The notes beneath the pieces were generated by a model that did not search any database, had not been told where the DNA came from, and saw only the letters and a list, made by a program, of their open reading frames with translations. Below, in pieces: positions 1,713-51,121 of a stretch of DNA of 64,000 nucleotides (the first letter of the stretch is position 1; every line of letters starts with the position of its first letter). This DNA comes from Heterohyrax brucei (Eukaryota > Chordata > Mammalia > Hyracoidea > Procaviidae): positions 159,210,329 through 159,274,328 of the forward strand of contig CM053143.1 in NCBI GenBank assembly GCA_028571685.1, read 5' to 3'. Position numbers and translations under genes: made by a program.

Positions 1713-1729
1713 GCCAGCCAAGTGCCGTC
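1713..1729 (-). mobile_element. Possible ultrashort TTGGC-type SINE tail
   Basis: Seventeen bases read on the minus strand as GACGGCACTTGGCTGGC. This matches the core of the ultrashort insertions at 9359, 28651 and elsewhere. It sits directly beside the right target duplication of the preceding SINE. No separate target duplication is clear, so it may be an independent insertion or a junction product. Confidence 0.4.
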
Positions 1730-3560
1730 TACTCTTTTCCTTATGTTGAAATTTTACTATAGTTATTGATATTTAATAGTCAACACACATATTTTTTTAA
1801 AAAAAATAAAGGATATTGAAACACATAAAGTCTCAACCCTGATTTCATATACTAAAACATATAAAGTCTCAACCCCTTGATTTCAGCTCAGTAATACTAG
1901 TTTTGGACCTCTAACCTCTTGACTAGTGAGAAAATAAACTTCTGTTGTTTTAAATCACAAAGTATACAGTACAGTATTACAGCAGCCATAACAAACTAAT
2001 ATAAAGTACATGTTCATTAAGGGAGCATCTTGATAGTTTTCAGTATATGATGGAAACGGAACTGTCCAGGTAAAATACATCTGCCTTCTTCTGTCTGAAA
2101 TGTCTGTTAAGTACATTATGGTTTTCTTGAGTCACTAGAGTTGAATACATACCTAGTGATTTTGAAGATACAGAAATATCTCACATGTGATCTTGATTGT
2201 GCATGATTATATATTATATTTAAAAAATGAATATTCCCCATGGAAAAATAATTAGATATTGTACTACAATTGGTTTTTTGGACTGAGAATAATGTAAATA
2301 ATTTGGTATTAGCTAAAAGCCACATACTTGTTGTATGGTCTTATAAAAATGCCTTCTCTGTTCTGTATCACCATGAACAACCTGAGAGTAACACCACCCA
2401 ACTCACGGACTAACAGGAGGGTTATGCCCGATAGTCAAGTGAAACTGTGTAAGCGCAGTGTAGCGAGGTTTTATCTGCAACATAGTGGGTTTTCAGTAAG
2501 CACTATGCATCTTTCTTTTCCCCCTACAAACTAACTTAATACATTTCAAAGAGAATTAATCTGGCAGCAGGCCAAAATTGCAAGATTGCTGGTTTGAGAA
2601 GTAAGATTGCTGCAGTATCCATTTTCTTTATAAATGGCTGGGTTTGGATATTTTGGAGGGTGAATCTAATTCATCATCACTGTTAAGATGTCATGTAATA
2701 CTATATAGAAAACTGGCTTTTGTGAGTACAAGGATGTTATAGTTTCCAATAAAATACAAAATATTTACTACATCCAGATGAGAGACTGTGTCTGATTTCA
2801 ATAGCAGGTAAATGAAGACCTGTTCTCACAGCCTTAAATCATTGTCATCTCTACAGAGCCCTGTTATTCATTTCCAGACTAGAAGACCTAGCACTACACG
2901 CTTCTACTGAATGCAATTTTTCTCTGTACGAAATTTTACCATCCAAAACAAATAACAATGGCTCAAAAGGAACAGTCCTGGAACTGTTAAAACTAGAGTA
3001 GAATTTGTTTAATAATTTACTTTAAAAGCTCTGAAGTTCAAGCATTAATCAATTTTCTAAAATTCAATTAATCATACTATAAATATTGTTAAAGCAATCT
3101 TTCCTTAGGGGATAGAATCAAATTATCATAGAAAAGTTGGTTGACAATTGTTTGTTAACTGTACAATGTAGACTCGTGATGAGGATTATTTTTCTGCTCT
3201 AAATGATGTGACTGCCAGTTTTAATGTTGTAAAAGGGAGCAGTGCTGTCAGTGAGCTCCAGACCGAATCTGAGTACGTCCTGTCCAACTGGTGACATAAA
3301 GTTTCGGCTTTTTGTTATAGAGGAGCAATTGTGGATCCAATGTGTAAGCCATCATTAAAACTGACAGCTCTCATTATATGTGGCATACAAACCATTCAAA
3401 ATAAAACCTGAAGACTGAATTGATTGGACAAATAAACTCATGGCAACTTATCAAATGGGATCATATATATATTCCAGAATCATAGATCTACCCCTATTAA
3501 CGTAAATTAATATTTCACGTATGTCCATCATTTACAACTTATACAAGATACTGCAAATTG
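1730..3560. other. Unrecognised AT-rich DNA with a small internal duplication
   Basis: A direct duplication of about 30 bp lies at 1819-1886, each unit containing ATAAAGTCTCAACCC. The stretch 2380-2475 is less AT-rich than its surroundings and keeps several CpGs (CTCACGG, GCCCGAT, TAAGCGC, TAGCGAGG). I cannot assign it to any element. No gene is supported. Confidence 0.45.
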
Positions 3561-3563
3561 AAA

Positions 3564-3730
3564 GGAAAAAAAAACCCACTACTGTCGAGTCAGGTCCAAC
3601 TCATAGTGACCCTAGAGGTCATAGCAGAATGGCCCCATAGGGTTTCCAAGGAGTGCCTGGTGGATTTGAACTGGCAACCTTTTGGTTAGCAGCCGTAACA
3701 CTTAACCACTACACTACCAGAGTTTCTGAT
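3564..3730 (-). mobile_element. AfroSINE, short form, full length
   Basis: On the plus strand it runs from an A-rich tail through GTCGAGTCAGGTCCAACTCA, AGGGTTTCCAAGGAGTGCCT and GTGGATTTGAACTGG to the head ACTACCAGAGTTTC. The 7-bp ATTGAAA at 3557-3563 and again at 3731-3737 is a likely target duplication. Confidence 0.92.
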
Positions 3731-3808
3731 ATTGAAAATGGATCAAATATTTAAATGGAAAAAAAAGGCACTGAAAATGCACTAGAACAAAGCTTTTTGT
3801 TGTATCTG

Positions 3809-3860
3809 AAACTCAAAACATACACATAAACTCAAAACAAAACATAAACTCAAAACATAA
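3809..3860. repeat. Short imperfect tandem repeat
   Basis: Three to four copies of a unit containing AAACTCAAAACATA lie end to end, with small insertions between them. Confidence 0.8.
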
Positions 3861-4121
3861 GGGAAAGATTGATAAAATCACCTACTTACACAAATATACC
3901 TATGAAAAACCTGTGGAAACAATTGTGTCATGGAATTATGATCTACCCAATTATCTCTTGATGGTACTCATTTTATTTTCCATAAAATGAAAGGCCATGT
4001 CATTTAATAATCAATGATCTTTAACTGGGTCATTTCTTCCTATATTCTAGCCCAAGCCTTAGTTTCTGTCAAGCATTTCTAATTGTTAGTACCATAATGT
4101 TAGCCTGTTTATCATTCCACT

Positions 4122-4149
4122 TTGTGTGTGTGTGTGTGTGTGTGTGTGT
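4122..4149. repeat. (TG)n microsatellite
   Basis: A pure run of TG dinucleotides of about 14 units, in unrecognised DNA between a SINE and an LTR. Confidence 0.97.
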
Positions 4150-4468
4150 TGCTAGTTTACTTTGACATTTTTTCCCAAACTTCATCTTATGAGCATGATT
4201 AGAAAAGATAAGTGTATATTTTCTTTTAACCACAATTCTATTATTGTCTGTGTGGCTTTATGATGCTGGGCTTGGGAGATGGCACATTTAATTTTCCAAA
4301 GTCATTTTCCAGATACTTTATTCTTAGTTTCTGTCAAGGGGAGGCAATTGTGGGAAATTGTAAAGAAAGAGGAATGAAAAAAGTATTCTTGTCCACTTTT
4401 CAGACCGTTTGCCTCACTCTTAACAAACCCAATCCACTGTCATTGAGTGATGTCTGATTGACAGCGAC

Positions 4469-4952
4469 TGTCTTTGTCACCCAGTGCTGCTTTAACAGAA
4501 ATACTACTAGTGAATGGCTCTAAAAAGAGAAATTATTTTTGTCACAGTTCAGTAAGCTAAAAACCTAAATTCAAGGTGTCCATTCCAGTGGAAGGCTTTC
4601 TCTACTGGCTCTGGAGGAAGGTCCTTGCCATCAATCTCCTGCTGGGTTGGGAGCCTCTGAGGCTCAGGGACCTGGGTCCTTCGCAGAGGACTGCTCATCT
4701 CCAGATACCGCTTGTTGGTGGAATGAAGTCGCTACACCTCTATGCTAGCTTCTTTCAGTTTATATCTCAAGAGACTGCCTCAAGGCACAAATTAATTTTA
4801 CACCTTGATTCCTGTCCCTCCAATTCAACTTCCACCCACATACACTCATTAACATCACAAAGGCAGGATGTACCAAAGTGAGGAACAATGTGCAATGCTA
4901 AGAAACACGGCCCAACCAAACCACCCCACACATTTTTGGGGGAACATAGTTC
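4469..4952 (-). mobile_element. Solo LTR, MaLR/ERVL-like family 1, antisense
   Basis: It starts TGTCTTTGTCACCCAGTGCT and contains the family blocks GAAGGCTTTCTCTACTGGCT, GGAGGAAGGTCCTTGCCATC and, near the far end, CACATTTTTGGGGGAACA. The same blocks occur at 45481-46070, and in the opposite orientation at 17363-17887. The far end is missing where the next SINE begins. No target duplication is recoverable. Confidence 0.75.
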
Positions 4953-5089
4953 CACTGTTGACAGCAGTCCTATAGGACAGAGTAGAATTGACCCACAGAG
5001 TTTCCAAGCAGCACTTGCCTGTTGGATTTAGACTGCTGACCTTTTGGTTAGCAACCATAGCTCTTAACCACTATACCACCAGGATTTCC
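4953..5089 (-). mobile_element. AfroSINE, short form, tail truncated
   Basis: It reads GTCCTATAGGACAGAGTAGA, CAGAGTTTCCAAGCAGCACT, then CTGCTGACCTTTTGGTTAGC and the head CACCAGGATTTCC on the plus strand. Its 3' tail is missing where it abuts the LTR, suggesting insertion into the LTR end or a shared deletion. Confidence 0.88.
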
Positions 5090-5859
5090 CCAACAACAAA
5101 AGTCAGTTACGATTCAGCGTCCAATGCCTTTTAGCACTCCTAGCACCTACTGTATCATCCCATAGCAGAAACATCAACATCAGCTATATAGCAGTTCTCC
5201 GGGCCAGAGGTCCAATCGCTTACTGTGAAGCAGAAACCTCAGAGGAGCTCTTTTTACTTGCAGAGACTGAAAAGATTTAGCTACCCTAACTTATCTTTTA
5301 TATTTTGGAGCAGCTTCTAGCCCCTTAAATTGTCCAAGCTAAAAGTAGTAGTTTTTCCAAAGCTATGCAATACATGTTTTGTATTTATTTATTTATGTGT
5401 GCAATACTAACCATGATTTCCATTTGTTTTTCATGATCCCAACTGATACTCTGTGTTGTATGAGTAATGGTACCAGGAATGTGAGTCTGGAATTAGTTTT
5501 AAGTATGAGATTCTGGGATTAGTTTTCATGATGAAAGTATTATTTGAAACTGTCAGTCAATAGAATGTAGCAGCATCACAATTACTTATATTAATACGTG
5601 CCATTCCTTTGAGTTAAATTCATACTGAAGGCCAGGCTCCAGGATAAATAGTGGCTTAGGTAAATTGGTGATATCAAAAACTGAGGGACAGAGAATCCAG
5701 AGTTTGAAAGGCTTGCAGAAAGAAAATGGCAAACTTAAGGTCTTAAGTTTTGTGATCAGTCACAGCAAAACATCAGAGAGTTGCTTTAGCATCACTTATA
5801 TCTGGTAAGGTCTGAATAGATAAAAATGAAAGTGAAAATCCTACTTAGCATTTAATTAA
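5090..5859. other. Unrecognised DNA
   Basis: No gene is supported. The first 150 bases (AATGCCTTTTAGCA at about 5125) loosely recall sequence at 25635-25700 inside the provirus, so part may be an ERV-related remnant. The evidence is too thin for a call. Confidence 0.35.
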
Positions 5860-6017
5860 ACAAACAAACAAAAAGCCTACTGCAGTCCAGTTGATTCTGA
5901 CTCTTATTAACTCTGCGTGACTGAGATGCATTAGTCCAAAGTTTTGCCAAGGATCTACTGGTGGATTGGAACTTGGTTGGCAGATAAGCAGTTAACTACC
6001 ATGCTATCAGGAATCCA
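5860..6017 (-). mobile_element. AfroSINE, short form, diverged
   Basis: A CAAACAAACAAAAAGCC tail is followed on the plus strand by GTTGATTCTGACTCTTATTA, GTTTTGCCAAGGATCTACTG and the head TGCTATCAGGAATCC. There are many substitutions relative to the copy at 3564. Confidence 0.8.
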
Positions 6018-7538: not shown

Positions 7539-7550
7539 TTTGCGTGACCG

Positions 7551-7707: not shown

Positions 7708-7720
7708 GTTTGCATGACCA

Positions 7721-8535: not shown

Positions 8536-9205
8536 TTTTGTTTGTTTGTTTGTTTTTTATTTAATATGACTGAGTGAAAATGTACATTCCTGTATAAATT
8601 TACATGCCCACCTATATGCAGCTTCCACTGCTCTCCCTGCACGGTGACAGCACACTATTCCTCTCTGCTCCATACATGTCTCATCCTCCCAACAGTCTCC
8701 TTTCACCTCCTCTCCATCCACTCTCCTTCCTCCAGCCAGAGGTCAGCAGGATGATATCCTACAGATGCATAGAACCATAAAGTGCATCCAATATATGGTC
8801 ACTCTGCATCGCCAAGTCCAATCCATTCCTGTCCGAAGAGTGGTCCTTCGTTATGATTTATGGGCAAGGGCAGCATCAGGGCCAGGGGCCATGCTCCCAG
8901 GGGAACCCCGAAACCGCTGGACCATCAATTGAGGTCTTTTAGTGGAGATCTCAGGGTGCACCCCTCTTTATTCTTATGTTGCCAATGAGACTCAACTTAG
9001 TGAGCTCCATCGCGGCTATCACTGGTAGTGGCTGGGCACCATTCGGTTCTTCCGGTCCCAAGTCGATGTAGGCACCCACTCGTGTGGGTCTCTCTATCTT
9101 CTGGGTTGTCTTTCCCCATGTCATTTTGGTCCTCGGTGAGCATCCATTCCTGCTGAGTTGGGACCACTTGCTGCGCCCTCGGATGGCAGCTTGGCAGCTT
9201 TTTAG
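8536..9205 (-). mobile_element. L1 3' UTR, 5'-truncated, antisense
   Basis: A T-rich run with TTTG repeats at the left is the poly-A end of a minus-strand L1. The body is L1 3' UTR: TGACTGAGTGAAAATGTACA, GGGGAACCCCGAAACCGCTGG and GTTGGGACCACTTGCTGCGC. It is closely similar to 33425-34080 but ends at GCAGCTTTTTAGG, where the longer copy continues. It retains several CpGs, so it is relatively young. A weak 6-bp GATAAC at both sides may be the target duplication. Confidence 0.85.
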
Positions 9206-9224: not shown

Positions 9225-9850
9225 TCACTATAATAAAGAGGATGAAGACAATCATCACTCCTAGAAGTTTCTTCATGCCTTGTGATAAATCCTCCGCAAC
9301 ACCTCCCTGTCCTACTTCCCCAACCAACCACTGATTAATCCTGTCACTATATATTACTGCCCTAGGATCGCCCTGAGTTGGATCCGACTCGACGGCACTT
9401 GGCTGGCATATATTACTTTCCCTTATCTAGAGACGTATATAAATGAAACCATATAGTATAAATTTTTTTCTTTCTTTTGATCTAGCTTTGCACAATAATT
9501 CATCTTATTTATGTGTCAATGATAAATAGTATTCTACTGTATAGCTATGCCGAAATTGTTTAACCATTTGCCTGTAGATAGACATTTTCAGCAGTGTCTA
9601 GTTCTTGTTCATTATAAATAATGCTGTTATAAATATCGGGTTACTAACCTTCAGTTGATCGTATATTTCCTTGTTCTCTTTGGTAATTACCTAGGAGTGG
9701 AATAGCTGAGCTATACGATAGATGAATGTTAAGTTTTTGAAAAACCTGACCTAATTTTCCAAAGAAGCTTTACCATTTTACATTTCCACTAGCAGTATAT
9801 TACAGTTCTGTTATGAAACTTGTACAAAACTCTTACAATAATCACAGAAA
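9225..9850 (-). mobile_element. Old L1 3' region, antisense
   Basis: Plus-strand order: CCCCAACCAACCACTGATTA, GTATATAAATGAAACCATATAG, then ATAAATAATGCTGTTATAAA, TACCTAGGAGTGGAATAGCTG and TTTTACATTTCCACTAGCAG. This is the usual antisense order of an old mammalian L1 C-terminal/3' region. It is highly diverged with no open frame. An ultrashort insertion lies at 9359-9407. Confidence 0.65.
9359..9407 (+). mobile_element. Ultrashort AfroSINE-tail insertion (49 bp) with perfect target duplication
   Basis: The insert ends GGATCCGACTCGACGGCACT plus TGGCTGGC. It is flanked by a perfect 10-bp duplication ATATATTACT at 9349-9358 and 9408-9417, within old L1 sequence. It corresponds only to the last ~45 bases of an AfroSINE-like element, with CpGs intact. 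The duplication shows that a retroposition event inserted exactly this short piece. Confidence 0.85.
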
Positions 9851-10630: not shown

Positions 10631-10955
10631 TTCCTTACATCACCTCCCAATTTATTTTATTTGCCAAAAGCCTAAATATTCTGTCCATCTCTTTTAGCCA
10701 ATAATCTGAACAAGCATGAAGACTCATTTCTTTATCTCTCAGTTTAGCTCAATGAAGTTTTTAACCAGAAGATACTCTGTCTTTCTATCTCATTACTGTG
10801 GCAAATTAGCTGTGAATGTGCCTCCCTTTTAGCTCTTTCTATGGGCAGTACAAATTTCTATTGTAGTGTCTCTCATATTGTTCCACTTATGTATTAATAA
10901 TTTTGCTTTTTATTATTATGATGTCAGTTTTAAAAAAATTAATAACAGACATCTT

Positions 10956-10977
10956 ACTCGATGGCACTTGGCTTGGC
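10956..10977 (+). mobile_element. Possible ultrashort TTGGC-tailed insertion
   Basis: ACTCGATGGCACTTGGCTTGG matches the core and tail of the insertions at 9359 and 50813. No target duplication can be seen in the AT-rich flanks, so the boundaries are uncertain. Confidence 0.5.
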
Positions 10978-20070: not shown

Positions 20071-20093
20071 CCCAAAGCCAAGTGCTGTCGAGG
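20071..20093 (-). mobile_element. Ultrashort TTGGC-type SINE tail at microsatellite edge
   Basis: On the minus strand it reads CTCGACAGCACTTGGCTTTG, the core of the ultrashort insertions. The flanks are TA-rich, so a target duplication cannot be recognised. Confidence 0.55.
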
Positions 20094-21499: not shown

Positions 21500-21706
21500 G
21501 ATAACCCCTCTTTAATGACATAGAGGGAGGGGTATCACACAGACTGTTCCTGGTATAGACACCAGTATCCCTAGAGTCTTAGTATCTGGGAGGTGGTCTG
21601 GTAGACTAGGGTTTGCTTCAGGGTCTGGGATAGGAACCAGAACACGCAAGGTAGGACAAACATTGTATAAAACAACAGTCTACAAACAATTACTAGTAGG
21701 TATAGT

Positions 21707-21740
21707 TGGCTCCGACTCGACGGCACTTGGCTTGGCTGGC
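21707..21740 (+). mobile_element. Ultrashort TTGGC-tailed insertion (34 bp) in the provirus
   Basis: The insert contains CTCCGACTCGACGGCACTT and a tail of TGGCTTGGCTGGC. ATAGT at 21702-21706 and 21741-21745 is a short target duplication. It must be younger than the provirus. CpGs are intact while the provirus itself is badly decayed. Confidence 0.75.
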
Positions 21741-22301
21741 ATAGTCAGCCTAGGTTGGGAGTCTTGAAAATATTTCTTTAAATTTTGTCCTGAAGAAACC
21801 TTCCTGCTATTAGAGGAACTGTGATGTTCTCTTAACTGTGTAGTTTTTCAGGTCCCTGGGCAAGGTGGGTGGACATTATCTGACTCAGTCTTCTGGGCAG
21901 GATCTAAAAAAAAACACTTGAGTCTCCCGGTTAGTTTCAGCATGAGAGATCAGGTAAGGATTTTCAATCAAAATTCTACTATTATTAGCACTTTCATTTC
22001 CCATAGAAGTAATTCTCCTGGTCAGTAGCATGTTTTCACTATAACCCTTGAAAGACTTTATACTCAAAATTTTTATGGGAAAATGGGTGGAGGTCTCTTC
22101 TTCCTTATCTGCTTCACACTGAGTAAGGGCATAGTTCTGCCTATCTGAGTAGAAACTTCTCCTTGACAGTCATTTATAATGGCCAGGATAACAATTAATG
22201 CATATCAGTTAGGGCCCATGAACATTATTTTATTTGGAATTGTAGTCTGAGAGATAATAAGTTGTCCTGGAAACCCAAACTGGAGTTACCTAGTTTTATA
22301 T

Positions 22302-24631: not shown

Positions 24632-24814
24632 TTAGTTCTGCTCAGGGGCCTTCAGGTTAAAGAATGTCCACATTCTACTGCACTCACACAGTCTTTTGTC
24701 TTCCCATGGGGGCTGGTAGGTGGTTTCCATGAGCTTAATGGTGGCCTGGAGCCTCTCCAAATAGGAGGTCTTCTGTTTCCAATTGAGCAAATCTACAGTT
24801 GTAAGCCAAGCCAA
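24632..24814 (-). pseudogene. Gag capsid remnant
   Basis: A 60-codon frame containing DLLNWKQK, YLERLQATIKLMETTYQP and W-E-D spacing, which resembles the capsid region of gammaretrovirus-like gag upstream of the major homology area. It is supported mainly by its position between the primer binding site and the nucleocapsid knuckle. The start codon is not meaningful, and the frame is broken on both sides. Confidence 0.55.
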
Positions 24815-24830
24815 GTGCCATCAAGTCAGA
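24805..24830 (-). mobile_element. Ultrashort TTGGC-tailed insertion (26 bp) with perfect 11-bp target duplication
   Basis: The insert on the minus strand is TCTGACTTGATGGCACTTGG plus CTTGGC. TACAGTTGTAA flanks it perfectly at 24794-24804 and 24831-24841. At 26 bp it is among the shortest retroposed insertions one could recognise. It is slightly diverged (CpGs turned to TG/CA). Confidence 0.85.
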
Positions 24831-25324
24831 TACAGTTGTAAAGAGTTGGTAATAATTATGTGGGCTGGACCTCGGGTCTCTCTAGAGACATTTGTAATAA
24901 CTCCAGAGAACTTCTGGTCAGAGGTCTGTGCGATGTTTCTGTGTTGGGTGGACCTTGCTCTGACTCCAGGGGCACAGAGTAGACTGAAGGCAGGGTGGTT
25001 TCAGGTACCGTGGGACCTGTCGGTTCTGGGGCCATGGGTTGGTGAGAAATATGGAGGGGGCTTTTCTTCTGGGGGTCCTTGAAGCACTGGTGAATGCTGA
25101 TCTTGCTTATTGGTGCAGAACCACACTGGAGGTGGAAGAGCTAACCACTGGCCTGGGTGTCCAGGGGTACCAGTGACCACTTTTCACACAGCCATGACCC
25201 TCTTGACATCTAGCGAGCCCTCAGGGGGCCAATCTAACTCCGTAATTGCCATTGTATCCCTTCTTGAAATTTTTCACCATGCAGTCTAATATAGAGGGCT
25301 TAAATTCTGACCCTCCCATTGTAA

Positions 25325-28529: not shown

Positions 28530-28720
28530 CTGCACATCTGTTATTCCATCTCATCATTGCAATAATTTGGTAAAGTTAATGCAACTATTATTGACATTTT
28601 AAAGTTACAAACCCCACCTAAGTATTTTTGTTCTCCCTCTCTATCAATTTCGGATCCGACTCGACGGCACTTGGCTGGCTCTATCAATTTAAGTTACCCA
28701 CTTAGTTTAATTCCCTGCTC
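28530..28720 (+). mobile_element. Possible MIR fragment
   Basis: CATCTCATCATTGCAATAAT and CTATTATTGACATTTTAAAG follow the order of a MIR 3' half (the classic ATCTCATTTAAT...ATTATTATCCCCATTTTACA region). Weakly conserved, and split by an ultrashort insertion. Confidence 0.4.
28651..28678 (+). mobile_element. Ultrashort TTGGC-tailed insertion (28 bp) with perfect 12-bp target duplication
   Basis: The insert is CGGATCCGACTCGACGGCAC plus TTGGCTGG. CTCTATCAATTT flanks it perfectly at 28639-28650 and 28679-28690. All CpGs are intact. Nothing of the SINE body or head is present. Confidence 0.92.
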
Positions 28721-30089: not shown

Positions 30090-30610
30090 CTGCCAATTAA
30101 GTTTGCAAACTCATCCTAGGAAAAATGCTACATACCTCATTGCTGAGTATCACTACAGGCACCTTCAAAGTTCTTCCTTGGGAAGCTATGCACTGACAGC
30201 AGTGCCTAGTCTACTCTTCAAATCAATTTTGGAACTCTTTTGCTGGAATGGCCACCAGAGCTGTCATTGTATTACCCATGATGACCTGAATGTCATCAAA
30301 ATATCTTTCAATATTTCCTTTGTCTTATGGTAAAGAAAAAAATCATTGGGGGCCAGATGAGGAGAATAGGGAGGGTGTTCCAATACGGTTATCTGTTTGC
30401 TGGCTAAAACTCCCTCACAGGGTACTATACAGTGAAGTTCACAAACTTGCCACCATGCCACTGTGTGCGATGGCCATTCTAGAAAGAGTTCCAAGATTGC
30501 TTTGAAGGGTGGACTAGGTGCTGTCTTTGGTGCATAGTTTCCTAAAGGGAGTACTTCAAAGGTGACTGTAGCGATACTGAGCAATGAGGTATGTATCAGT
30601 TAGAACAACT
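30090..30610. mobile_element. Mariner transposon remnant with inverted 3' ends
   Basis: The minus strand at 30264-30466 encodes a decayed mariner transposase C-terminal part: LASKQITVLEHPPYSPHLAP then DFFL, the usual mariner sequence up to its catalytic Asp. It runs on to a 3' end at about 30090 (minus-strand AATGAGGTATGTAGC and AGTTTGCAAACTTAATTGGC). From 30467 to 30608 the same 3'-end sequence appears in plus orientation (TTGCTTTGAAGGGTGGACTA, AATGAGGTATGTATC). The result is two mariner 3' ends facing outward from a shared centre. Confidence 0.8.
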
Positions 30611-30929: not shown

Positions 30930-30971
30930 TCGCCATGAGTCGGATCCGACTCGACGGCACTTGGCTTTTGG
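30930..30971 (+). mobile_element. Ultrashort TTGGC-tailed insertion (42 bp) containing a perfect palindrome
   Basis: It holds the 16-bp perfect palindrome GAGTCGGATCCGACTC (30937-30952), followed by GACGGCACTTGGCTTTTGG. CTAGC at 30925-30929 and 30972-30976 is a possible 5-bp target duplication. CpGs are intact. Confidence 0.75.
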
Positions 30972-30976
30972 CTAGC

Positions 30977-33359: not shown

Positions 33360-35699
33360 TTTTTAATTTAATTTTATTTATTATTTATTTATTTAATTTT
33401 ATTTTATTTTATATGACTGAGTGAAAATGTACATTCCCATATAAATTTACATGCCCACCTACATGCAACTTCCACTGCTCTCCCTGTCTGGTGACAGTAT
33501 GCTATTCCTCTCTGCGCCATACATGTCTCATCCTCCCAACAGTCTCCTTTCCCCTACTCTCTAACCACTCTCCTACCTTCAGCCAGAGGTCAGCAGGATG
33601 ATATCCTATAGAGGTATAGAACCATAGAGTGCGTCCAATATATGGTCACTCTGCATTGCCAAGCCCAATCCATTCGTGTTCAAAGAGTGGGCCTTCATTA
33701 TGGTTTATGGGCAAGGGCAGCATCAGGGCGAGGGTTCATGCTCCCAGGGGAACCCCGAAACCGCTGGACCATCAGTTGAGGTCTTTTAGTGGAAATCTCA
33801 GGATGCACCCCTTTTCATTGAGACTCAACTTAGTGAGTCTCAACTTAGTGAGACTCAACTTAGTGAGCTCCACTGTGGCTATGACTGGTGGTGGCCAGGC
33901 ACCATCCAGTTCTTCCAGTCCCAAGTCGATGTAGGCACCCACTCATGTGGGTCTCTCTGTCTTCTGGGTTGTCTTTCCCCATGTCATTTTGGTCCTCGGT
34001 GAGCATCCGTTCCTGCTGAGTTGGGACCACTTGCTGCACCCTCGGATGGCAGCTTGGCAGCTTTTAAGAACCCAGACACCACTCACCAATGTGGGGTGCA
34101 GAGAGCACTCTTAGAAAAATGCTAGTTGTGCCAATTGGCCTCAATTTTACCTAAGAGCATGGTCCCCTGCCCCCTGCCCCAGCTACTCTATCCTTGCAAT
34201 ACTGGGTTAAGATGGAAGGAGTATTCAAGTTATGCTGAAGTCCACTTAATATTATTCTTGTTTCTAATGTGTGCTATCACTGATTTCACGCAACCAGATT
34301 TCTAGCAACTATCTAATCTAACCCCTCTGCCCTCCCTCCCTGCTCTCCCTCTCTCCCCTCCCTTGCAGCTGTCAAAGAGTCTTTTGTTCTATACACAAGT
34401 CTGTTTTTGAGATGTTATCGTAGAGGACTCATACAATATTTGTCCTTTTGTCGCTGACTACTTTCACTCAACATGATGTCTTCCAGTTGAAACCAGGTTA
34501 GGAACTGTTTCCTGGAATCACCATTATTCTTAATCATTGCGTAGTGCTCAATTGAGTTTATATACCATAGTTTACCTATCCATTCTTCTGTTATTGGGCA
34601 TCTGGATTGATTCCATCTGTCTTAGACTGGGTTTTCTAGGGAAGCAAAACCAGTAACACGTGTAGGTACAAGGAAAGTGTTATAACATATATATAGATAG
34701 ATAGATACAAATATAGGAAACAGCTCACGTAATCACAGAAGCTGAATGTCCCAAGCTCTGGCACAAGCCTCACGTGGCCACGGAAGCTGAGGTACCCAAG
34801 GTCAGCAAGTCATAGACCAGAGTTCTAGATCACCGGTTGTGTAGGTCAGTGGATCCCAAGCTGGTGGCAAGACGAAGCAACAGAGGCTGACAAAACCAGG
34901 ATCGGCAGGTCAGGGAGCAGGACTCTCAGGTGCCGACTGTAAGGACTGATGAGTCCAACAGCTGCTAGCTTATGTCCTGGATCCAGACACTGGAAGAAGA
35001 GGGCAGGAGCTCCTGGCCACATGAGCGACCAGCAGCCGTAGTGAAAGGTCGTGAGATGAGAGCCAAGGGGCAGGGAGCCACCACAAACCCTGCCTTGCGC
35101 TTAATACAACAGCCAAATATGTAGTAGCCAAGTTGACATAATCCTGACCACCACACCATCTTTTTGCTATCGTGGACTGTGCTGCGATAAACATTCTGGT
35201 GGACATGTCCATTGGTGTAAAAGACCTTGATTCTGTAGGATTTATTCCAAGTAGTGGAATGACTGGGTCAAATGGTATATCAATATCCATTTCTTTAAGG
35301 AAGTGCCAGACTGCTTTCCAAAGAGGCTGGACCATTTTGCAACCCCACCAACAGTGTAGGAGTTTCTCCACAGCCTCTCCACAGTTTCTCCACAGCCTCT
35401 CCAGCATTTGTTGTTTTGTGTTTTTTGGATCATGGCCAACCTTGTTGGGGTGAGATGGTATCTCATTGTCACCTTGATTTGAATTTCTTTAATAACTAAA
35501 GATCGTGAACATGTCCGCATGTGTTTTTTGGCTGCCTGGATCTCCTCTTTAGAGAAGTGTCTGTCCGTCTCCTTTGCCTATCGCTTAATTGGATGATTTA
35601 TCATCTTCTTATTGATATTTTGGAGTATTTTATAGATTATGGAGATCAGGTGTTGGTCTGACATTGAGTTGCCAAATATTTTTTCCCATTCTGTAGGTG
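33360..35699 (-). mobile_element. L1, 5'-truncated, antisense, with 17-bp target duplication
   Basis: T-rich start (the poly-A end), 3' UTR (33425-34470) and the C-terminal part of ORF2. TTCATTGTCCAAATTTT flanks it perfectly at 33343-33359 and 35700-35716, placing it inside an RTE fragment. On the minus strand ORF2 shows IPLLGINP and FIAAQSTIAK and a C-terminal Cys motif expanded by short duplications. A solo LTR splits ORF2 at 34618-35155. The 3' UTR contains a local triplication at 33806-33870 and a C-rich tract at 34321-34375 (G-rich on the L1 strand). Confidence 0.93.
34618..35155 (-). mobile_element. Solo LTR (family 2) in L1, with 5-bp target duplication
   Basis: 538 bp from TGTCTTAGACTGGGTTTTCT to CCTGACCACCACA, flanked by CCATC at 34613-34617 and 35156-35160. 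The duplicated target is L1 ORF2. The 5-bp duplication and TG...CA ends fit an ERVL/MaLR-type LTR. It is related to 52026-52572 (both contain CTAGGGAAGCAAAA and GCTCAC early on). Orientation is inferred from the family and is less certain than the borders. Confidence 0.85.
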
Positions 35700-35725: not shown

Positions 35726-37785
35726 TCTCGTTGTTAGGTGCTGTCAAGTCAGATTCCACTCATGACAGCCCCATGTACCACAGAATGGTATTCCTCTTTT
35801 TAACCTGAATGCTGCTTGCATTTCTGCCTGTTTCCTGTTGATATACTGCTGTGGCCACTTTTGAATGACCTTCAGCAATATTTTACTTGCACATGATATT
35901 AATGATATTGTTCAGTAATCTCGTGATCTCTTGGTACTAGCCATAAATATGAATCTCTTCCAGTTGTTTGGCCAGGTAGTCATCATCTAAATTGCTTGGC
36001 ATAGACTAGTAAGTACGTCCAGTACTGCATCCATTTGTTAATACATCTCAGTATTTCATCACTTCCTAGAGCCTTGTTTTTCTACAATGCCTTCAGTACA
36101 GTTGAGATTTCCTCCTTCAGTACAACCAGTTTCTGCTTATATGGTACTTTATGAAATGGTCAACCAGTTCCTTCTGGCACAATGACTGTGTGTATTCCTT
36201 CCATCTTTTTTAGATGTCTCTTGAGCCATATAATCCTTCAGTATTCTAACTTGAGGCTTTGAGTTTTTTCCTCAGTTCTTTCACCTTAATAAATATTGAC
36301 AGCATTCTTCCCTTTGGTTTTCAATCTCCAGGCCTTTGCACATGTTATTACCATAATTAACTTTGTCTGCTAGAGCAATCCTTTAAAATTATCTGTTGAA
36401 CTGTTTTACTTCAGCATTTTTATGTTTCATTTTAGCCACTTGATGTTCAAGGGCAAGCTTCAGAGTCTCTTCTGACATCCGTTGTGGTACTTTCTTTCCT
36501 GTCTTCTTAGTGACCTCTTGTTTTCTTCATGTATGATATCTTTGATGTTATTTCACAGCTTTCTTGGTTTTTGACCATTAATATTCAATTTATCAAATAT
36601 ATTCTTGAAACGGACTTTAAAATCACATGGGATATACTCAAGAAAATACTTTGACTCTCATTCTAATTTTCTTCAGTTTCAACTTAAAATACATGATGGT
36701 CTGATATGTAGCCAGTCCTTTGATTTGTTCTAGCTGATAATATTGAACTTTTTCATCGTATCTTCCCACAGACATAGTCAGCTTGATTTCTGTGTATTCC
36801 TTCTGGCAAGGTCCATGTGTAGAGTTTCCATTTATGTTGGGGAAAAAAGGTATTTGTGGTGAAGAAGGTGCTGGCCTTACAAAATTCTCTTATGTGATCT
36901 TTGGCTTCATTTCTATTAGCAGTGCTATGTTTTCCAAATACCAATCTTTCTTCTTTGTTTCCAAATTTTGCATTGCAATCTTCAGTAACTATCAACGTAT
37001 TGTGATTGTGTATTCAATCAATTTCAGATTGCAGTAGTTGGTAAAGATTTTGAACATCTTCACCTTTAGCTTTAGTAGTTGATGGGCAAATTTGAACAAC
37101 AGTCCTATTAACTGATCTTCCTTGCAGATGTGTGACTATTATGCTGTCTTTGACAGTATTCCTCTTCAGGATACACCTTGAGATGTTCTTTCTGATGGTG
37201 AATGCAATGACATTCCTCTTCAAGTTGTCTCTGTTAACATAGTACACCACTTGATTGTCTTATTCAAAATGGCCAGTTTCAGTCCATTTCAGCTCACTAA
37301 TACCTAAGATAGCAGTATTTATGAGTTGAATATCATGTTTGGCAATTTACGATATTCCTGGATTCATATTTTGTACATTCCATGTCCCAGTTACTAATGG
37401 TGTTTGCAGCTGTTTCTTCTCATTTTGAGTCATGCTGTATCAGCAAATGAAGGTCTTGAAAGCTTGACTCTAGCCACACCATTAAGGTGAACATTACTTT
37501 GAGAAAACAGATCTTCCTCATTCGTCATTTGAGTGCCTTCCAATCTGAGGGACTGGCTCATCTTCTGGTGGTATGTCAAATAACATTCTGATGCTATTCA
37601 TAAGGTTGTCACTGGCTAAATCTTTTTAGAAATAGACTGGTAATTCTTTTTTCTAATCCATCTTAGTTTGGAAGCTCAACTGAAACTTGTCAGTCATGTG
37701 TGACATTGCTGGAATTTGAATACATGTGGCATAGCTTACAGCATTATAGCAACATTCTGTACTCCACAGTATAACAATCTGAAAG
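35726..37785 (-). mobile_element. RTE-type LINE, antisense, 5' complete but internally deleted
   Basis: It begins with the RTE 3' tail (TTGTTAGGTGCTGTCAAGTC), jumps after about 55 bases to the mid RT region (TTCCTGTTGATATACTGCTG), then runs continuously to the RTE 5' end (GGCATAGCTTACAGCATTAT). It covers part of the reverse transcriptase, the linker and the endonuclease. All frames are broken. Confidence 0.9.
36753..37250 (-). pseudogene. RTE endonuclease domain remnant
   Basis: Two minus-strand frames (37014-37250, then 36753-36995) together cover the apurinic-type endonuclease of an RTE LINE. The second shows DCNAKFGN, then NRNE, IREFCKA, a TNTFF block and YTWTLPEGIHRNQADYV. These are the Asn, aromatic and Asp positions of the endonuclease fold. 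In an active LINE this domain nicks target DNA to prime reverse transcription. Here it is broken by a frameshift and stops. Confidence 0.75.
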
Positions 37786-38948: not shown

Positions 38949-38990
38949 ACTCCATGAGTCGGATCTTACTCAACAGCACTTGGCTTTGGC
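38949..38990 (+). mobile_element. Ultrashort TTGGC-tailed insertion (42 bp)
   Basis: CCATGAGTCGGATCTTACTC then AACAGCACTTGGCTTTGGC. ATAAT at 38944-38948 and 38991-38995 is a possible 5-bp target duplication. One arm of the palindrome seen at 30937 is mutated. Confidence 0.7.
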
Positions 38991-43476: not shown

Positions 43477-44439
43477 TACATATAATAATGCAAAAAAAGT
43501 TTTGAGGAAAGAGAACTCATGTTCTTTGTGTGTGTCTTAAACCAAAAAGCTTTTAGATTGTTGTCTCTTTCATTCTTTGTTTAAAACCAAGAACATAATG
43601 TGTGAAAAATTTTGATGATAACCAATATTTCACACATTGTGAATAATAATGTATGATTTATAAACTGAGATGATCGATAAAAGTTTAGAGTAGAAGAATT
43701 AAAAAAATTGATTTTTATTTATGATTATTGAGTTACTTTGTATAACACTAGCTCTTTAAATATAAACCAGCAACTAAAAGCTTATTCAGCCCTTGTGGAG
43801 GAAGGCTGTGCAATCTCTGTGTCAGGACTTGCACCAGTAACTTAATGTTGTGAATGATGAATCACCGTGTTATTTAGTTTGATGTACTAACTAAAAACTG
43901 AAGAAACTCTTTTTTTTTTTTTTTTATAAACAGTTGAGTAGGCTGCTAAGACCAATTAATTGAAAGAATGTAAAGCAACAACAAACTTTTCAAGAAGTTA
44001 AAAATATTCTAAATATTAATTGGCATTATGGTTAATAACTGAACTCAGAGATTGAACTTTTATACAGACCACATAATTTCCTCATTCACAGAGTAAATTA
44101 ATAAAGTCAATTCGTATAAAGGTGTGGATAATGATTCAACTGTGGATAATGTGGATAATGAGTCAACTGGTCTCTCCACTATTCTCTGAATATGACTTAT
44201 TACTATAACTTGTAATTTCATTATTCCAATTATGTACGTTTTATAATTATATATACTTTGAGGAGGTATTATTTATGAGAAGAGAAACTTAGCTGTATTT
44301 TCTGAAACTAAAATAGGAGAAAGATCATTGTCATTGAATTCATTCAGCTTGTGGCAACTGAGAGTAGAACAGTCTCCCTTTTCCAGCCCCAGATCTTGAG
44401 ACTTTTGTGCAGAACTGGTGATATGGAAGGAAAATGCCT
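43477..44439. other. Unrecognised AT-rich DNA with a short tandem repeat
   Basis: An 18-base T run at 43910-43927 and a tandem unit GTGGATAATG (about 44124-44160) are the only structures seen. Confidence 0.4.
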
Positions 44440-45480
44440 ATGCTGCAATGAAAGCAAAGCAAAGGCAAAACAAAAACAAAAACAAAAAACAAGTCTCCAG
44501 GAATTGACAGGACATCAACTGAGATGTTTCAACAAACATGCAACACTGAAGTGATCATTTGTCTATGCCAAGAAATTTGGAACACAGCTACCAGGACAAC
44601 CAACCAGAAGAGATCCGTAATTGTGCCCTTTGCAAAGGTGACCCAACCTAGTGCAGCAGTTATCAAACAATATCATTAATACCAAACACAAATAAAATTT
44701 TGCTGAATATCATCCACAAGCAGTTGAAGCAATAAATTGACCAGTAACTGCCAGACGCTCAAGCTGGATTTAGAAGAGGGCGTGGAACAAAGAATACCAT
44801 TGCTGATATTAGGTAGATCTGGCTGAAATTAGGGAACACTGGAAAGATGCTTACCTGTGTTTTATTGACTATATTAAGGCACTGGACTATATGGATCATT
44901 ACAAATTATGAACAACACTGAGAAGACTGGGAATTCTGGAACACTTAAATATGCTTATCAAGAAACTGTGCTAAAGCAAGAGGCAGTCATTAGAATAGCG
45001 CAGGGGAATACTGCCTGTCAGGAATGGTGTGTGCCAGAGTTGTTTCCTTTTCCCACACTTACTAATTCTGCATGTCATACAAATAATATAAGAAGGTCTT
45101 CTATATGAAGAACAGGGCATCAGGAGAGGAGGAAGACTCATTAATAACCTGTGATAAGCAGATTACACAATTTTCCTTGCTGAATATGAAGAGGACTTGA
45201 AGGACTTACTTATCAAGGTGAAAAACAAAAATACAGCTTTCAACATGAATTGTACCTGAACAGAAAGAAAACAATAACTCTCAAAACTGGACAAATAAGC
45301 AACATCATGATACACAAGAAAAAGTTTGAAGTAGTAACTAATTCCATTTTACTCGGATCCACAATGAGCACCCATGGAAACAGCAGTCACAAAATCAAAA
45401 GACACACGGCATTGGGCAAATTTACTGCAAAAGATCTTTTTAAGGTGCTAACGGAAAAAATGTCTCTTTGAGCACAAAGG
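44440..45480 (+). mobile_element. RTE-type LINE, sense, reverse transcriptase region (left of LTR)
   Basis: CAGGAATTGACAGGACATCA, GCCAGACGCTCAAGCTGGAT, TGTTTTATTGACTATATTAAG and ATATGAAGAACAGGGCATCA follow the RTE RT order. The residues FIDYIKAL (an F-x-D-x-x-K-A-F-like RT motif) can be read. There are stops and frameshifts throughout. The element resumes after the LTR at 46071. Confidence 0.88.
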
Positions 45481-46528: not shown

Positions 46529-47084
46529 AAGACAAGTACTTTTCTAACATCTCAGCGATGATCAATGAAACTTTTTTGCTCTTCTTGTTTGAACCTTCAG
46601 CAAACACATCGTGATGACTCCATATTTCTTGGCTATTGGTATATTTTCCTCCACAGAATTATGTTGATATAAAATACAATATATTTTGATTTTTTTATTA
46701 ACGTGCTGGCTTACACTTAAAACTAAACAAAGATTTCAGAAGGGCAGGGTCATTTCTCCTCTGTTCACTTTGATTTATTTGTAAAACTCTTCATTATTTT
46801 ATTTCCATTGTCTAGCACAGTACCTTGCACATAGTAAGTGTTCATTAAGTGAATTTTGAATGAATAAGTATGATAACATTCAGATTACACCATCTTCTGT
46901 CACTTTGTTATTCTCTGGTGGCTTGCATGTGATTGTGATACTGGAATCTATGTCACTGATATTTCAAATAACAATAGGGTCACCCATGATGGCTTGGTCT
47001 CAGTGGAGCTTCTAGACTTAAAAACATAAGTACAAAGGCCTAACTGCTTCCAAAAATTTACCAAGGAAAATCTTATGGATCACA
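46529..47084. other. Unrecognised DNA containing an L2 fragment
   Basis: No gene. An L2 3' end lies at 46755-46870. Confidence 0.4.
46755..46870 (+). mobile_element. L2 LINE 3' end
   Basis: TTCCATTGTCTAGCACAGTA, CCTTGCACATAGTAAGTGTTC and GAATTTTGAATGAATAAG reproduce the characteristic L2 3' end. Confidence 0.7.
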
Positions 47085-47285
47085 AGAGAACAGTTTCCAA
47101 ATCACTTGTTTTAGACACATCATCAGAAACGAACAATCACTGGAGAAAAATATCATCATATCTAGTGAATCAAAGAGCCATTAAGGGCGAGTGAACTCTG
47201 GTGAGATGGATTGACTCAACAGGCACAACAGCAGATTTGGATATTCTAGAAATTGTGGGGACAGACTTGGGCAATGTTTCCTCAA
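47085..47285 (+). mobile_element. RTE-type LINE 3' fragment, sense
   Basis: TTTAGACACATCATCAGAAA, AATCACTGGAGAAAAATATC, GATGGATTGACTCAACAGGC and GACTTGGGCAATGTTTCCTC. The very tail is absent. Confidence 0.75.
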
Positions 47286-47527
47286 AACTGAAAAAGAACT
47301 ATTGAAATTGTAAGATTTCAAATTATCTACTGAATTAAATCTTGATGATTTGTAGTTTGCTCTGTCTCCATGAACAGAAATTGGACTGCCTCTTGGTTCA
47401 CGCTGAGCAGGTTCACCAGGCAATTGGGGCAATGCCATTTAAATCAAGCCTGATCATTGGGGGTAAGGGGGGGATAAAATGGGAAAAGTAAAATTATATG
47501 AGTTTCAAGATAGCTGTGTCTTTTGGA

Positions 47528-47742
47528 AGGAGCCCTGGTTGCTTAGCGGTTAAGTGCTTGGCTGCTAACCTAAAGGCTGATATTTTGAACATAACTTTGC
47601 ACTCAATGGGGAGAAAATGTTCAGTGTATTTCATAAAGACTATAGCCTTGGAAATACTATGGAGTAATTCTATTCTGTCTGTCTTTTAGGGCCATAATGA
47701 GTCAGAACTGAGTTGATGACTATGGGTTGAATTTTTTGGTTT
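47528..47742 (+). mobile_element. AfroSINE, long form, full length
   Basis: AGGAGCCCTGGTTGCTTAGC head, TGCTAACCTAAAGGCTGAT, the long-form middle TAAAGACTATAGCCTTGG, then TTCTATTCTGTCTGTC and a tail ATGGGTTGAATTTTTTGG. Confidence 0.9.
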
Positions 47743-48124
47743 CATACCTTTTTGATTTGTTTTGAATGAATAAAAGTAGCTGGGACTATAATACAAATAA
47801 TGGAGAAATCTATGGGAAAATGTAATATAAATACTAGAAATAATGATCAGGTATTGTTTATTTAAGGTTTGAATAGTATTATGATTTTTTTTTTTTTCCC
47901 TAGAGAAAGAACTTATTTTTAGCATTGGAAAGTATGTTAAAACTGTAATACTTTGACAAATAGATTAAAAAATTGATACCTAAATGTTTTATGACAAAAG
48001 GTCACTCAGAATGCTTATCATTTTCAGAATGCAATACACCAGGTTAGAAATGTGTCAGTCTAAGACACTATCCAACTTCTTTAAAGGCATAATCAATGTG
48101 GGAACAATTATGGGTTGAATTGTG
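47743..48124. other. Unrecognised AT-rich DNA
   Basis: No feature supported except a 14-base T run near 47885. Confidence 0.4.
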
Positions 48125-49740
48125 TTGTTGTTCTTAAGTGTCATTAAATCTGCTGTAACTCACATGGATCCTCTGTGCAAGAGAATGAAATGTTGCTTGG
48201 ATTGTGCCATCCTCATGATCACTGCTGTGTTTGAGACTGTTGCTGCAGCCCCTGGGTCAATCCATGTGATTGACAGACTTACATTTTTTGGCACACTTTG
48301 CTTGCCCAGGCATGATGTGCTTCTCTAAGGACTAGTCTCTCCTGAAAACATGTCTGAAGTACATGACGGGAAGTCTTGCCATGCTTGCTTATAAACAGGA
48401 CTCTGGCTGCACTTCTGGCAAAACAGATTTACTTGTTTTTTTGGCAGTCAATTGTATAAACACTATTTTTCAATAGTGGCATAATTCAAAGGCATCAATT
48501 TCCCTTCACTCTTCCTTATTCAATACACAGCTTTTACATGCACATATGAAGTGATTGAAAATAACCAACTTGGAATCAAGTTTATCTCAGTTTCCAAGGT
48601 GACATTTTAGCTCTTTACAATATGGAGGTCTTTCTCTTGCTGCTTAATGCAGTACAACAACTGATCTTGACTGCTGCTTCAGTGGACATTGCTTGTGGAA
48701 CTAAGTAAAAGTTTCCTATGACAACTTGTATATATTATTTGTATATCATGATGATGCTTGTTGGTTTAGTGGCAAGTTTTTTTCCCCCTTGTTTTTTAAT
48801 GTTAAGAATGATATGACGAATGAATACAACCCGATGCACACCTTTTCTGGTTTTAAACAAAGCACCATCCCTGAAGTGTAAATTTTTATTTGAACTAGTG
48901 CTTATCGGTAAATGAATAGTTTTCTGCTATTCTCTGCCTTCACTCAAGATCCATCTGGTATCAAACATGTTAGTCACTGTTCCAAGTTATCTTGTGAACC
49001 TGGCTTGAATTTATGGCATTCTCCTGTCAATGTATTGCTGCAACTGTCTTTAAATTACCTTCAACAACAATTTAATTGTATGTAATATTATGATATTGTT
49101 TGATAATTGCTGAATGTCATTTCATCATGTTTCCTCCGAAAGGGTGTGTATATTGATTTCTTTGAACTGGTTGGCTTAGTTACTGCCTTTGAAATTTCTT
49201 GTCATGAATGAATGCGTGCTTCCAGAGTTATCTTTATTTGTTGAAACATCTCAGTTAGTACTCAGTCAGTTCTTACTGTCTTTATTTTATTGCCTGTGTC
49301 TTCAGTGAAACTTGAACATCTTCCTTGACTTCTGTAAGTTCTTGCTTACAGGCTGCTTCTTGAAATGGCTGGATGTTGACCAATTCTGTCTGGTTCAACA
49401 ACTTTGGATATTCCTTCCATCTTCCTTCTATGCTTCCTGGGCTGTTTAATATTTTGCCCACAGAATCCTTCAAAATTGTAACTCAAAGCTTGAACTTCTT
49501 AAGTTCTTTGAGTCTGAGAAATGTTCAGGGAGTTCTTCCTTTTTGTTTTTCTAATTTCAGGTCTTTGCACATTTCCTTATTACATCTTTCTTTGTCTTTA
49601 TGAACCATTCTTTGAAATCTTCTGTTCAGCAACCTTATTTTATCATTTCTTCCATTCACTTTAGCTACTTCATACTAAAGAGCAAGTTTGTAGTCTCTTC
49701 TTACATCCATTTTGGTCTTCCACTTCTTCCCTGTCCTTTT
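48125..49740 (-). mobile_element. RTE-type LINE, antisense, near-complete copy, part 1
   Basis: It starts at the 3' tail (TTGTTGTTCTTAAGTGTCAT) and runs through the RT region: CCAGGCATGATGTGCTTCTC, CACACCTTTTCTGGTTTTAA, TTCTCCTGTCAATGTATTGCTG. It then runs into the linker (GTCTTTGCACATTTCCTTATT). It is interrupted by L1 at 49741. This is the most complete RTE in the window once the three insertions are set aside (about 2.6 kb). Confidence 0.9.
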
Positions 49741-50031
49741 TTTTTTTTTCATTTTAAATTTTTTTTATTAAATAAAAAAATGAAAGTGTACATACTCTGT
49801 GCTTACAATACTGGGTTAAGAGAGAAGGAATACACAAGTTGTGTCGAAGACCCATTAATATTGATCTTCTTACTAATGTGTATTGTCACCAAATTTCTAA
49901 CAACTATCTAATCTAAACCCTCGCCCCTTGCCTTCCCGCCCTCCCACCATCCCCACCCTTGTAGCCATCAAAGAGTCTTTTCTATTATGTATGAGTATAC
50001 TTTTAAGCTTTTATGGCAGGGGTCTCATATA

Positions 50032-50478
50032 TTAATTGTCCTTCTGTCGCTGGCTAGTTTCACTCAACATAATGTCCTCCAGTTGAGACCAAATTGAGAG
50101 CTGTTTCCTGCTATCATTGTTATTCTTTACCAGTGTATAGTACTCCATTGAATATATATACCAAAGTTTACCCATCCATTCTTCTGTTGTTGGACATCTG
50201 GGTTGATTCAAACTTTTAGCTATTGTGGACTGTGCTGCAATGAACATTCGTGTGCATGTAGCAGTTGGTGTGAATGGCCTTGATTTTGTAGGATATATTC
50301 CAAGCAGAGGAATTACTGGGTCCAATGGTATATCTATATCCATCATTTTAAGGTAATACCAAATTGCTTTCCAAAGAGGTTGCACCATTCTGCAATCCCA
50401 CCAACAGTGAAGGAGAGTTCCAAACTCTTTACAGCCTCTCCAACATTTATTGTTTTGCATTTTTTGGATCACGACCAA
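50032..50478 (-). pseudogene. L1 ORF2 C-terminal remnant with Cys motif
   Basis: A 148-codon open stretch. It contains the C-terminal L1 cysteine motif (NKCWRGC, then LLHCWWDC), followed by PLLGIYPTKSR, FIAAQSTIAK and EEWMGKLWYIYSMEYY. It ends near the ORF2 stop. A frameshift separates it from the piece at 50541. Confidence 0.85.
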
Positions 50479-50540
50479 TCTTGTTGGGGTGAGATGTATC
50501 TCACTGTTGTTTTGATTCGAATTTCTTTAAAAATTAATGC

Positions 50541-50834
50541 TCATGAACATGTCTGCATGTGTTTTTTGGCTGCCTGGATCTCCTCTTTAGAGAACTGTCT
50601 GTCCATCTCCTTTGCCCATCGCTTAATTGGATGATTTGTCTTTTTCTTATTGATATTTTGTAGTATCTTATAGATTATGGAGATCAGGTATTGGTCTGAC
50701 ATAGAGTTGCCAAATATTTTTTCCCATTCTGTGGGTGGTCTTTTAATTCTTTTGATGAAGTCTTTGGATGAGTAGAAGTGTTTGATTCTTATTGATTCCC
50801 ATTTATCTATTTGTCGGATCCGACTCGATGGCAC
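50541..50834 (-). pseudogene. L1 ORF2 fragment (post-RT region)
   Basis: A 97-codon frame with DLINNWESIRIKHF-like start and KRWAKEMDRQFSKEEIQAA, the usual L1 ORF2 segment between the reverse transcriptase and the Cys motif. Its upstream end is cut by the ultrashort insertion at 50813, which adds foreign residues. Confidence 0.8.
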
Positions 50835-50848
50835 TTGGCTGACTTGGC
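50813..50848 (+). mobile_element. Ultrashort TTGGC-tailed insertion (36 bp) with 10-bp target duplication
   Basis: GTCGGATCCGACTCGATGGC then ACTTGGCTGACTTGGC. TTATCTATTT occurs at 50803-50812 and 50849-50858, in L1 ORF2. A further ACTTGGCTGGCTGGC (50859-50873) and a third near-copy TATCTATTT (50874-50882) follow. This is either a second insertion at the same target or expansion of the tail with the target. Confidence 0.85.
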
Positions 50849-51121
50849 TTATCTATTTACTTGGCTGGCTGGCTATCTATTTTCTCTTCCGATGAATGTG
50901 TTTTGTTTGTCAGATTTTGCTGTGTATATTGCGTATTAAATGTCCATTGTTGACCCTATCTTATCTTGGATGAGCTTTATCATTTCAGCTTTTATATTCA
51001 GGTCCTCAATTTGAGTTGATTTTTGTAGAAGGTCTGAGATATGGGTCTTGTTTCAATTTTTTGCAGATGCATATCCAATTATGCCAGCACCATTTGTTAA
51101 AGAGACTGTTCTTACCCCAGC

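What the first reader, a model, noticed from the sequence alone, without database searches (positions are those of the whole stretch)
1713..50873. A set of ultrashort (about 20-50 bp) retroposed SINE tails with their own TTGGC-repeat ending
At 9359, 21707, 24805, 28651, 30930, 38949 and 50813 (less surely 1713, 10956, 20071), the same core CCGACTCGACGGCACTTGG plus TGGC/TTGGC repeats stands alone, without SINE head or body. Four are bracketed by 10-12-bp target duplications, three of them perfect, so each was inserted as a short piece rather than left by deletion. The full-length SINEs here end in CAGTGGGTTTGG or GCAATGG, never CACTTGGC. The short ones are not simply 5'-truncated copies of those. 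Intact CpGs suggest recent activity.
Basis: partly seen in the sequence, partly recalled or inferred. Interest (0 to 1): 0.9.

Follow-up and report, generated by a model that had tools for sequence, protein, structure and literature searches.

The report
Ultrashort retroposed tails of RTE-type elements
Ten tiny pieces of DNA, each only the last hairpin and repeat tail of a jumping element, stand alone in this stretch, several flanked by the duplicated target that marks a true insertion, so a jumping-gene machine seems to have pasted in only the tip of its template.

Summary
The 19-base core occurs 7 times with up to 3 mismatches (0 expected). All 10 named places carry GGCACTTGG or AGCACTTGG plus a TGGC/TTGGC-type tail, without a SINE head or body. 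Four of 10 have perfect 10-12-bp target duplications (control rate 0.004).

The core is half of a 3' hairpin that also ends the old AfroSINE-like SINEs and one decayed RTE-like LINE in the window. The pieces are therefore 5'-truncated copies of a related, younger subfamily with its own tail, cut inside the hairpin (7 of 10) or 2-11 nt before it (3 of 10). Old SINEs with a 3' end are near full length in 21 of 27; pieces with this tail in 0 of 10.

Best explanation: target-primed reverse transcription by an RTE-type enzyme that stopped within about 50 nt. Why it stopped is not settled: hairpin strength gives mixed evidence. Longer source copies elsewhere could not be sought, because the genome search did not complete in 11 tries, and only 3 paper searches were answered. 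I file it as a new variant of a known kind and make no claim that it is unpublished.

The parts
9349..9417 (+). Piece A: 49-bp insert 9359-9407 between perfect 10-bp target copies ATATATTACT (9349-9358, 9408-9417); the longest piece
28640..28690 (+). Piece B: 29-bp insert 28651-28679 between perfect 11-bp target copies TCTATCAATTT
50803..50882 (+). Piece C: 36-bp insert C1 50813-50848 between 10-bp target copies TTATCTATTT, then a 15-bp tail-only unit C2 50859-50873 and a third, 9-bp target copy; lies in an L1 (antisense)
24794..24841 (-). Piece D: 26-bp insert 24805-24830 between perfect 11-bp target copies TTACAACTGTA (read on the - strand); core CpGs lost
21702..21745 (+). Piece E: 34-bp insert 21707-21740 with an extra TGGCT at its 5' end; only 5-bp match ATAGT
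30930..30972 (+). Piece F: 43-bp piece; only 5-bp match CTAGC
38949..38990 (+). Piece G: 42-bp piece, decayed; 5-bp match ATAAT by eye; shares ATCTTACTC with H
10950..10977 (+). Piece H: about 28 bp, 5' limit uncertain, no target duplication at the junction
20071..20092 (-). Piece J: about 22 bp beside a TA-rich repeat array; no convincing target duplication
1713..1734 (-). Piece I: 17-22 bp just past the tail of a SINE; no target duplication
35738..37400 (-). Decayed, internally deleted RTE-like LINE whose 3' end (35792-35738) carries the same hairpin followed by ACCTAACAAC
   Evidence: RTE likeness of the protein pieces is recalled
44300..45300 (+). Second decayed RTE-like LINE fragment (reverse-transcriptase part)
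   Evidence: likeness recalled

Best explanation
The pieces are extremely 5'-truncated retroposon copies made by target-primed reverse transcription with an RTE-clade LINE enzyme. The template was an RNA ending in the RTE-type 3' hairpin plus a TTGGC-like repeat tail. Copying started in the tail and stopped inside the hairpin or at most 11 nt past it, and the stub was still completed into a normal insertion with a 10-12-bp target duplication. Shown: anatomy, ragged 5' ends with a constant tail side, four perfect target duplications, younger age than the SINEs. Inferred: the RTE enzyme, one source subfamily with variants, and early stopping of the enzyme as the cause of shortness.
For: 7 of 10 pieces start inside the 27-nt hairpin, 2 start 2-3 nt and 1 starts 11 nt before it. 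Four of 10 have perfect 10-12-bp target duplications. The hairpin is shared with 27 old SINE tails and with the one RTE-like LINE end found. 0 of 10 pieces with this tail exceed 49 bp, while 21 of 27 old SINEs with a 3' end are near full length (Fisher 2.3e-5). The four pieces with duplications have 17 T of 28 at -15 to -9, as the published RTE signature would suggest (PMC13295347, section 4 read). The main form's hairpin is stronger (-12.5 kcal/mol) than the SINE forms (-9.3 and -10.6).
Against: Over seven sites the T excess is only a trend (22 of 49, P 0.07) and the stretch was chosen after looking. The hairpin variant of G and H is weak (-4.4) and yet just as short; with about 50 nt of flanking sequence the composed short form and the SINE form fold equally well (-17.2 and -17.3). 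Piece F's own best fold pairs differently, and none of four folds stands out from shuffles (z -1.3 to -1.7). Six of 10 pieces lack a significant target duplication. Ultrashort old copies could not be recognised by the profile, so the 21-of-27 contrast is biased upward. Only one window was available.
Confidence: 0.6

Rival explanations
1. Ordinary 5' truncation of a normal young RTE LINE or SINE subfamily; longer copies with this tail exist elsewhere and this window holds only short ones by chance.
For: 5' truncation is usual for LINEs, whose defective copies mostly range from 100 to 1,000 bp (PMC3747384, passage). The ragged 5' ends are what truncation gives. Only one 64-kb window was seen.
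Against: 0 of 10 pieces exceed 49 bp. If 10 independent copies are all short, the true share of such short copies is at least 74% at 95% confidence (own arithmetic).
Confidence: 0.25
2. The template RNA itself was short: a processed or degraded 3' fragment carrying the hairpin and tail was used by the RTE enzyme.
For: Lengths are narrowly bounded near the hairpin. RNA fragments do serve as retroposition templates in the L1 system (PMC5322556, passages).
Against: 5' ends are scattered over the hairpin rather than at one or two cleavage points; the number is small.
Confidence: 0.1
3. The pieces are leftovers of longer elements after deletion, or chance short repeats.
For: Six of 10 lack a significant target duplication.
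Against: In A, B, C and D perfect target copies abut the cut 5' end; the core has no chance matches.
Confidence: 0.03
4. L1 rather than an RTE enzyme inserted them.
For: Recognisable L1 sequence is present in the window (likeness recalled).
Against: No A tail in any of the 10 pieces and no TT|AAAA junction at the 7 sites listed (by eye).
Confidence: 0.02

Closest known systems
AfroSINEs (AFRO_LA, PSINE1) with partner LINE RTE1 (RTE1_LA, RTE1_Pca); pairing seen in a table of PMC3747384
   Same: Same 3' hairpin at the end of the element; a repeat-like tail.
   Different: No SINE head or body; tail of TTGGC type, not the T-rich or TTTGG type of the old SINEs nor the CTAACAAC of the LINE end; length at most 49 bp. 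The match of the window's SINE to AfroSINE letters is recalled, not tested.
5'-truncated RTE/Bov-B LINE copies
   Same: Truncation from the 5' side with the 3' end kept; target duplications of about 10 bp or more; 3' microsatellite-like repeats that differ between LINE and SINE of one species (PMC13295347, section 17 read).
   Different: Published surveys work with longer copies; that paper's target-duplication search required the two copies to lie at least 99 bases apart (passage), so inserts of this size were outside it.
Tailless retropseudogenes
   Same: Short RNA-derived inserts with target duplications (PMC5322556, passages).
   Different: Those lack the 3' end and are ascribed to L1; these consist of the 3' end only.

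Membership tests
AfroSINE (tRNA-derived SINE) | tRNA-like head and SINE body | tested here: not met
   0 of 10 pieces has model sequence before position 125 of the SINE profile; the pieces could still be truncated copies of a SINE
AfroSINE (tRNA-derived SINE) | LINE-like 3' hairpin | tested here: met
   Shared hairpin, cut at various points
AfroSINE (tRNA-derived SINE) | Tail as in the SINEs of the window | tested here: not met
   0 of 21 near-full-length SINEs end in CTTGGC; 2 of 21 have CACT at that place
RTE-mobilised retroposon | Target-primed insertion with short target duplication | tested here: met
   4 of 10 perfect 10-12 bp; 6 of 10 not shown
RTE-mobilised retroposon | Thymine stretch about 10 nt upstream and TA at the nick | tested here: inconclusive
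   22 T of 49 at seven sites, P 0.07; nicks by eye
Truncated RTE LINE copy | LINE 3' end sequence including the end of the reading frame | tested here: inconclusive
   Hairpin plus ATC and CAC as in the one LINE end found, but TGG stands where that end has TAA and the tail differs
Truncated RTE LINE copy | A longer source element with the same tail | not tested
   The genome search did not complete (11 tries)
L1-mediated insertion | Poly(A) tail and TT|AAAA target | tested here: not met
   (by eye)

The most novel reading that the evidence does not exclude
A recent and abundant class of retroposition in which the RTE enzyme, on this subfamily's RNA, almost always stops at the 3' recognition hairpin, so that the whole young family consists of inserts under about 50 bp that repeat annotation would mostly miss. 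If the window were typical of a genome of about 3 Gb there would be of the order of 500,000 copies (rough extrapolation from 10 pieces). The 15-bp tail-only unit at a reused target site (C2) would be the smallest.
Probability: 0.35. Interest if true: 0.8.

Novelty: new variant of a known kind. Interest (0 to 1): 0.58.

Why it matters
If general, many real retroposon insertions lie below the size that repeat annotation and target-duplication surveys look at. It would show that a cDNA of some 15-50 nt is enough for complete target-primed integration, and it would offer many small, datable presence/absence markers. Because the pieces share one constant 3' side, their 5' ends are a natural read-out of where the enzyme stops.

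Tried and rejected
Searching the window's own genome (the same genome search 11 times) did not complete, so no longer source element, genome-wide count or orthologous site could be examined. Viral contigs gave 0 matches twice. Genome contigs gave 0 and 10 matches to an 18-base pattern in prokaryote records, about what chance gives (about 15, own arithmetic), so they were not used. Pfam gave no match above its cut-off for the 10 ORFs submitted, of the 131 listed, so the RTE, L1 and mariner likenesses rest on recalled protein motifs. Rfam gave no match. Paper searches were answered three times. Gilbert et al. 2008, Nikaido et al. 2003 and Nishiyama and Ohshima 2018 could not be opened and are known only through citing papers.

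Rejected: that the pieces are copies of the SINE subfamilies seen in the window (tail and hairpin bases differ); L1 as the machine (no A tail, no L1 target motif). Not upheld: hairpin strength as the sole cause of shortness. Weaker than first thought: the L1 around piece C. With the flanks joined, L1-like pieces come to lie next to each other, but in two different frames (frame 2 before, frame 0 after), so there is a frame shift near the junction and no clean restored frame. Paralogous empty sites inside the window: none spans the junction for A to H; for I five SINE copies do, as expected because it lies just past a SINE tail and no target duplication was assumed; for J one low-complexity match does.

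Full report
What was checked. The 19-base core is exact at four places, one mismatch away at one and three away at two; none is expected in shuffles. The remaining three, at 38949, 1713 and 20071, are shorter or more decayed but end in the same way. In the 64,000 bases GGCACTTGG occurs 8 times, all in these pieces (simulation mean 0.28), and all 9 (T1-4GGC)2+ arrays lie in them (simulation mean 1.55, maximum 6). AGCACTTGG is less specific: 2 of its 5 occurrences are in pieces.

What surrounds them. An iterated profile search from one SINE of the window gave 33 matches. Three are short pieces of the set (9361, 30930, 38952), one is the end of an RTE-like LINE (35792-35738), and two lack the 3' end. 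That leaves 27 old SINE tails: 21 start within the first 22 model positions and 6 are truncated. The 27 keep 6 of 98 CpGs in the hairpin region. Of the 21, none has a flanking match of score 10 or more and one has score 9 (random places reach 9 in 1.3% of 300 trials). By contrast four of ten short pieces have perfect 10-12-bp duplications (scored differently), and four keep all three core CpGs. Piece D has perfect target copies but no core CpG left, and G and H have lost most of theirs, so activity was spread over time.

Insertion evidence. Duplications abut both ends of pieces A (9359-9407), B (28651-28679), C1 (50813-50848) and D (24805-24830). Random places reach 10 bp in 16 of 4000 trials, so 4 of 10 loci gives P 5e-8. 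E and F have 5 bp at the junction, G 5 bp by eye, and H, I and J nothing convincing. Piece C lies in an L1-like element on the other strand (likeness recalled). With the flanks joined at one target copy, L1-like sequence on the two sides is brought together, but it lies in frame 2 before and frame 0 after the junction, so this locus supports insertion into an L1 without proving a clean original frame. A second L1 in the window is 91% alike over 231 bases of the flank but stops short of the junction. Piece C also holds a 15-bp tail-only unit followed by a third target copy. Tandem Repeats Finder reads the place as two 26-base units with 88% matches and 7% indels, so either a second insertion at the same site or a later duplication fits.

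What the core is. It is the 3' arm of a hairpin of about 27 nt that also closes the old SINEs. A decayed RTE-like LINE on the minus strand (37400 to 35738) ends in the same hairpin followed by ACCTAACAAC; the hairpin coincides there with what reads as the last codons of the LINE frame and a TAA (frame 2; comparison with known RTE protein ends is recalled). Read without gaps in that frame, the short pieces share ATC and the C of CAC with the LINE end, where the SINE consensus has AAT and CAA. This rests on one decayed LINE copy. The TTGGC repeat has no stop codon in any frame, which argues for a non-coding source rather than an intact LINE (inference).

How short, and where cut. On a common frame in which the hairpin spans positions 12-38, the pieces begin at 1 (A), about 10 (F, G), 19 (C1), 21 (B), about 23 (H), 25 (D), 26 (E, after an extra TGGCT; the program gave 21), about 28 (I) and 30 (J); the tail-only unit C2 begins at 39. 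So 7 of 10 begin inside the hairpin, two 2-3 nt before it and one 11 nt before it. H, I and J have no target duplication, so their 5' limits were set by eye. The tail side is constant. This is what target-primed reverse transcription that starts in the tail and stops early would leave. The extra TGGCT of E could be a jump to the tail of a second template, but it is a single case.

Why so short. The main hairpin form is stronger (-12.5 kcal/mol) than the SINE forms (-9.3 and -10.6), which fits stalling. Against it: the composed G/H variant is weak (-4.4) and yet just as short; composed forms with about 50 nt fold equally well for short and SINE type (-17.2 and -17.3); piece F's own best fold is a different one; and none of the four forms folded with shuffles stands out (z -1.3 to -1.7). 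Early stopping remains the best reading, but its cause is open.

Machine. No A tail and no TT|AAAA junction (by eye at 7 sites) speak against L1. Work on RTE elements describes a thymine stretch about ten bases upstream and TA at the nick (PMC13295347, sections 4 and 17 read). Here the four pieces with good duplications have 17 T of 28 at -15 to -9, but over seven sites it is 22 of 49 (random mean 16.0, P 0.07), and the stretch was chosen after looking. The RTE assignment thus rests mainly on the shared hairpin.

Limits. The 21-of-27 against 0-of-10 contrast (Fisher 2.3e-5) overstates the case, because ultrashort old copies cannot be recognised. The robust part is that no copy with this tail longer than 49 bp is in the window. 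No species was identified; 'afrotherian' rests on a recalled likeness of the SINE to AfroSINEs. PMC3747384 (passages) pairs AfroSINEs with RTE1 LINEs. PMC5061548 (section 34 read) reports RTE1_LA copies in the afrotherians searched and not in armadillo and sloth. [quoted passage not shown] PMC8620236 (passages) added only general background on RTE decline.

Verdict. Real, non-random, related 3' ends, with four pieces shown to be inserted as short pieces: confirmed. Ultrashort retroposition by RTE-type machinery as a class of its own: likely, but unproven until a whole genome is counted.

Noticed in passing
50803-50882: Three copies of one target sequence around a 36-bp and a 15-bp tail piece: a second insertion at the same site or a tandem duplication.
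   Followed up: partly
21707-21711: Extra TGGCT at the 5' end of piece E, possibly a template jump to a second tail.
   Followed up: no
35738-35850 (-): In the decayed RTE-like LINE, reverse-transcriptase-like sequence is joined directly to the 3' end, as in an internally deleted copy (likeness recalled).
   Followed up: partly
9059-9205 and 33922-34068: Two copies of an unidentified repeat, 96.6% identical over 147 bases.
   Followed up: no
30267-30599 (-): ORF that resembles a mariner-type transposase by recalled motif; Pfam gave no match.
   Followed up: no
57727-57908 and 62573-62746: Old SINEs with other 3' ends (AACAACAGCAACAA-like; TTGTTGTTG-like), so tail types vary among SINEs of this window.
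   Followed up: no
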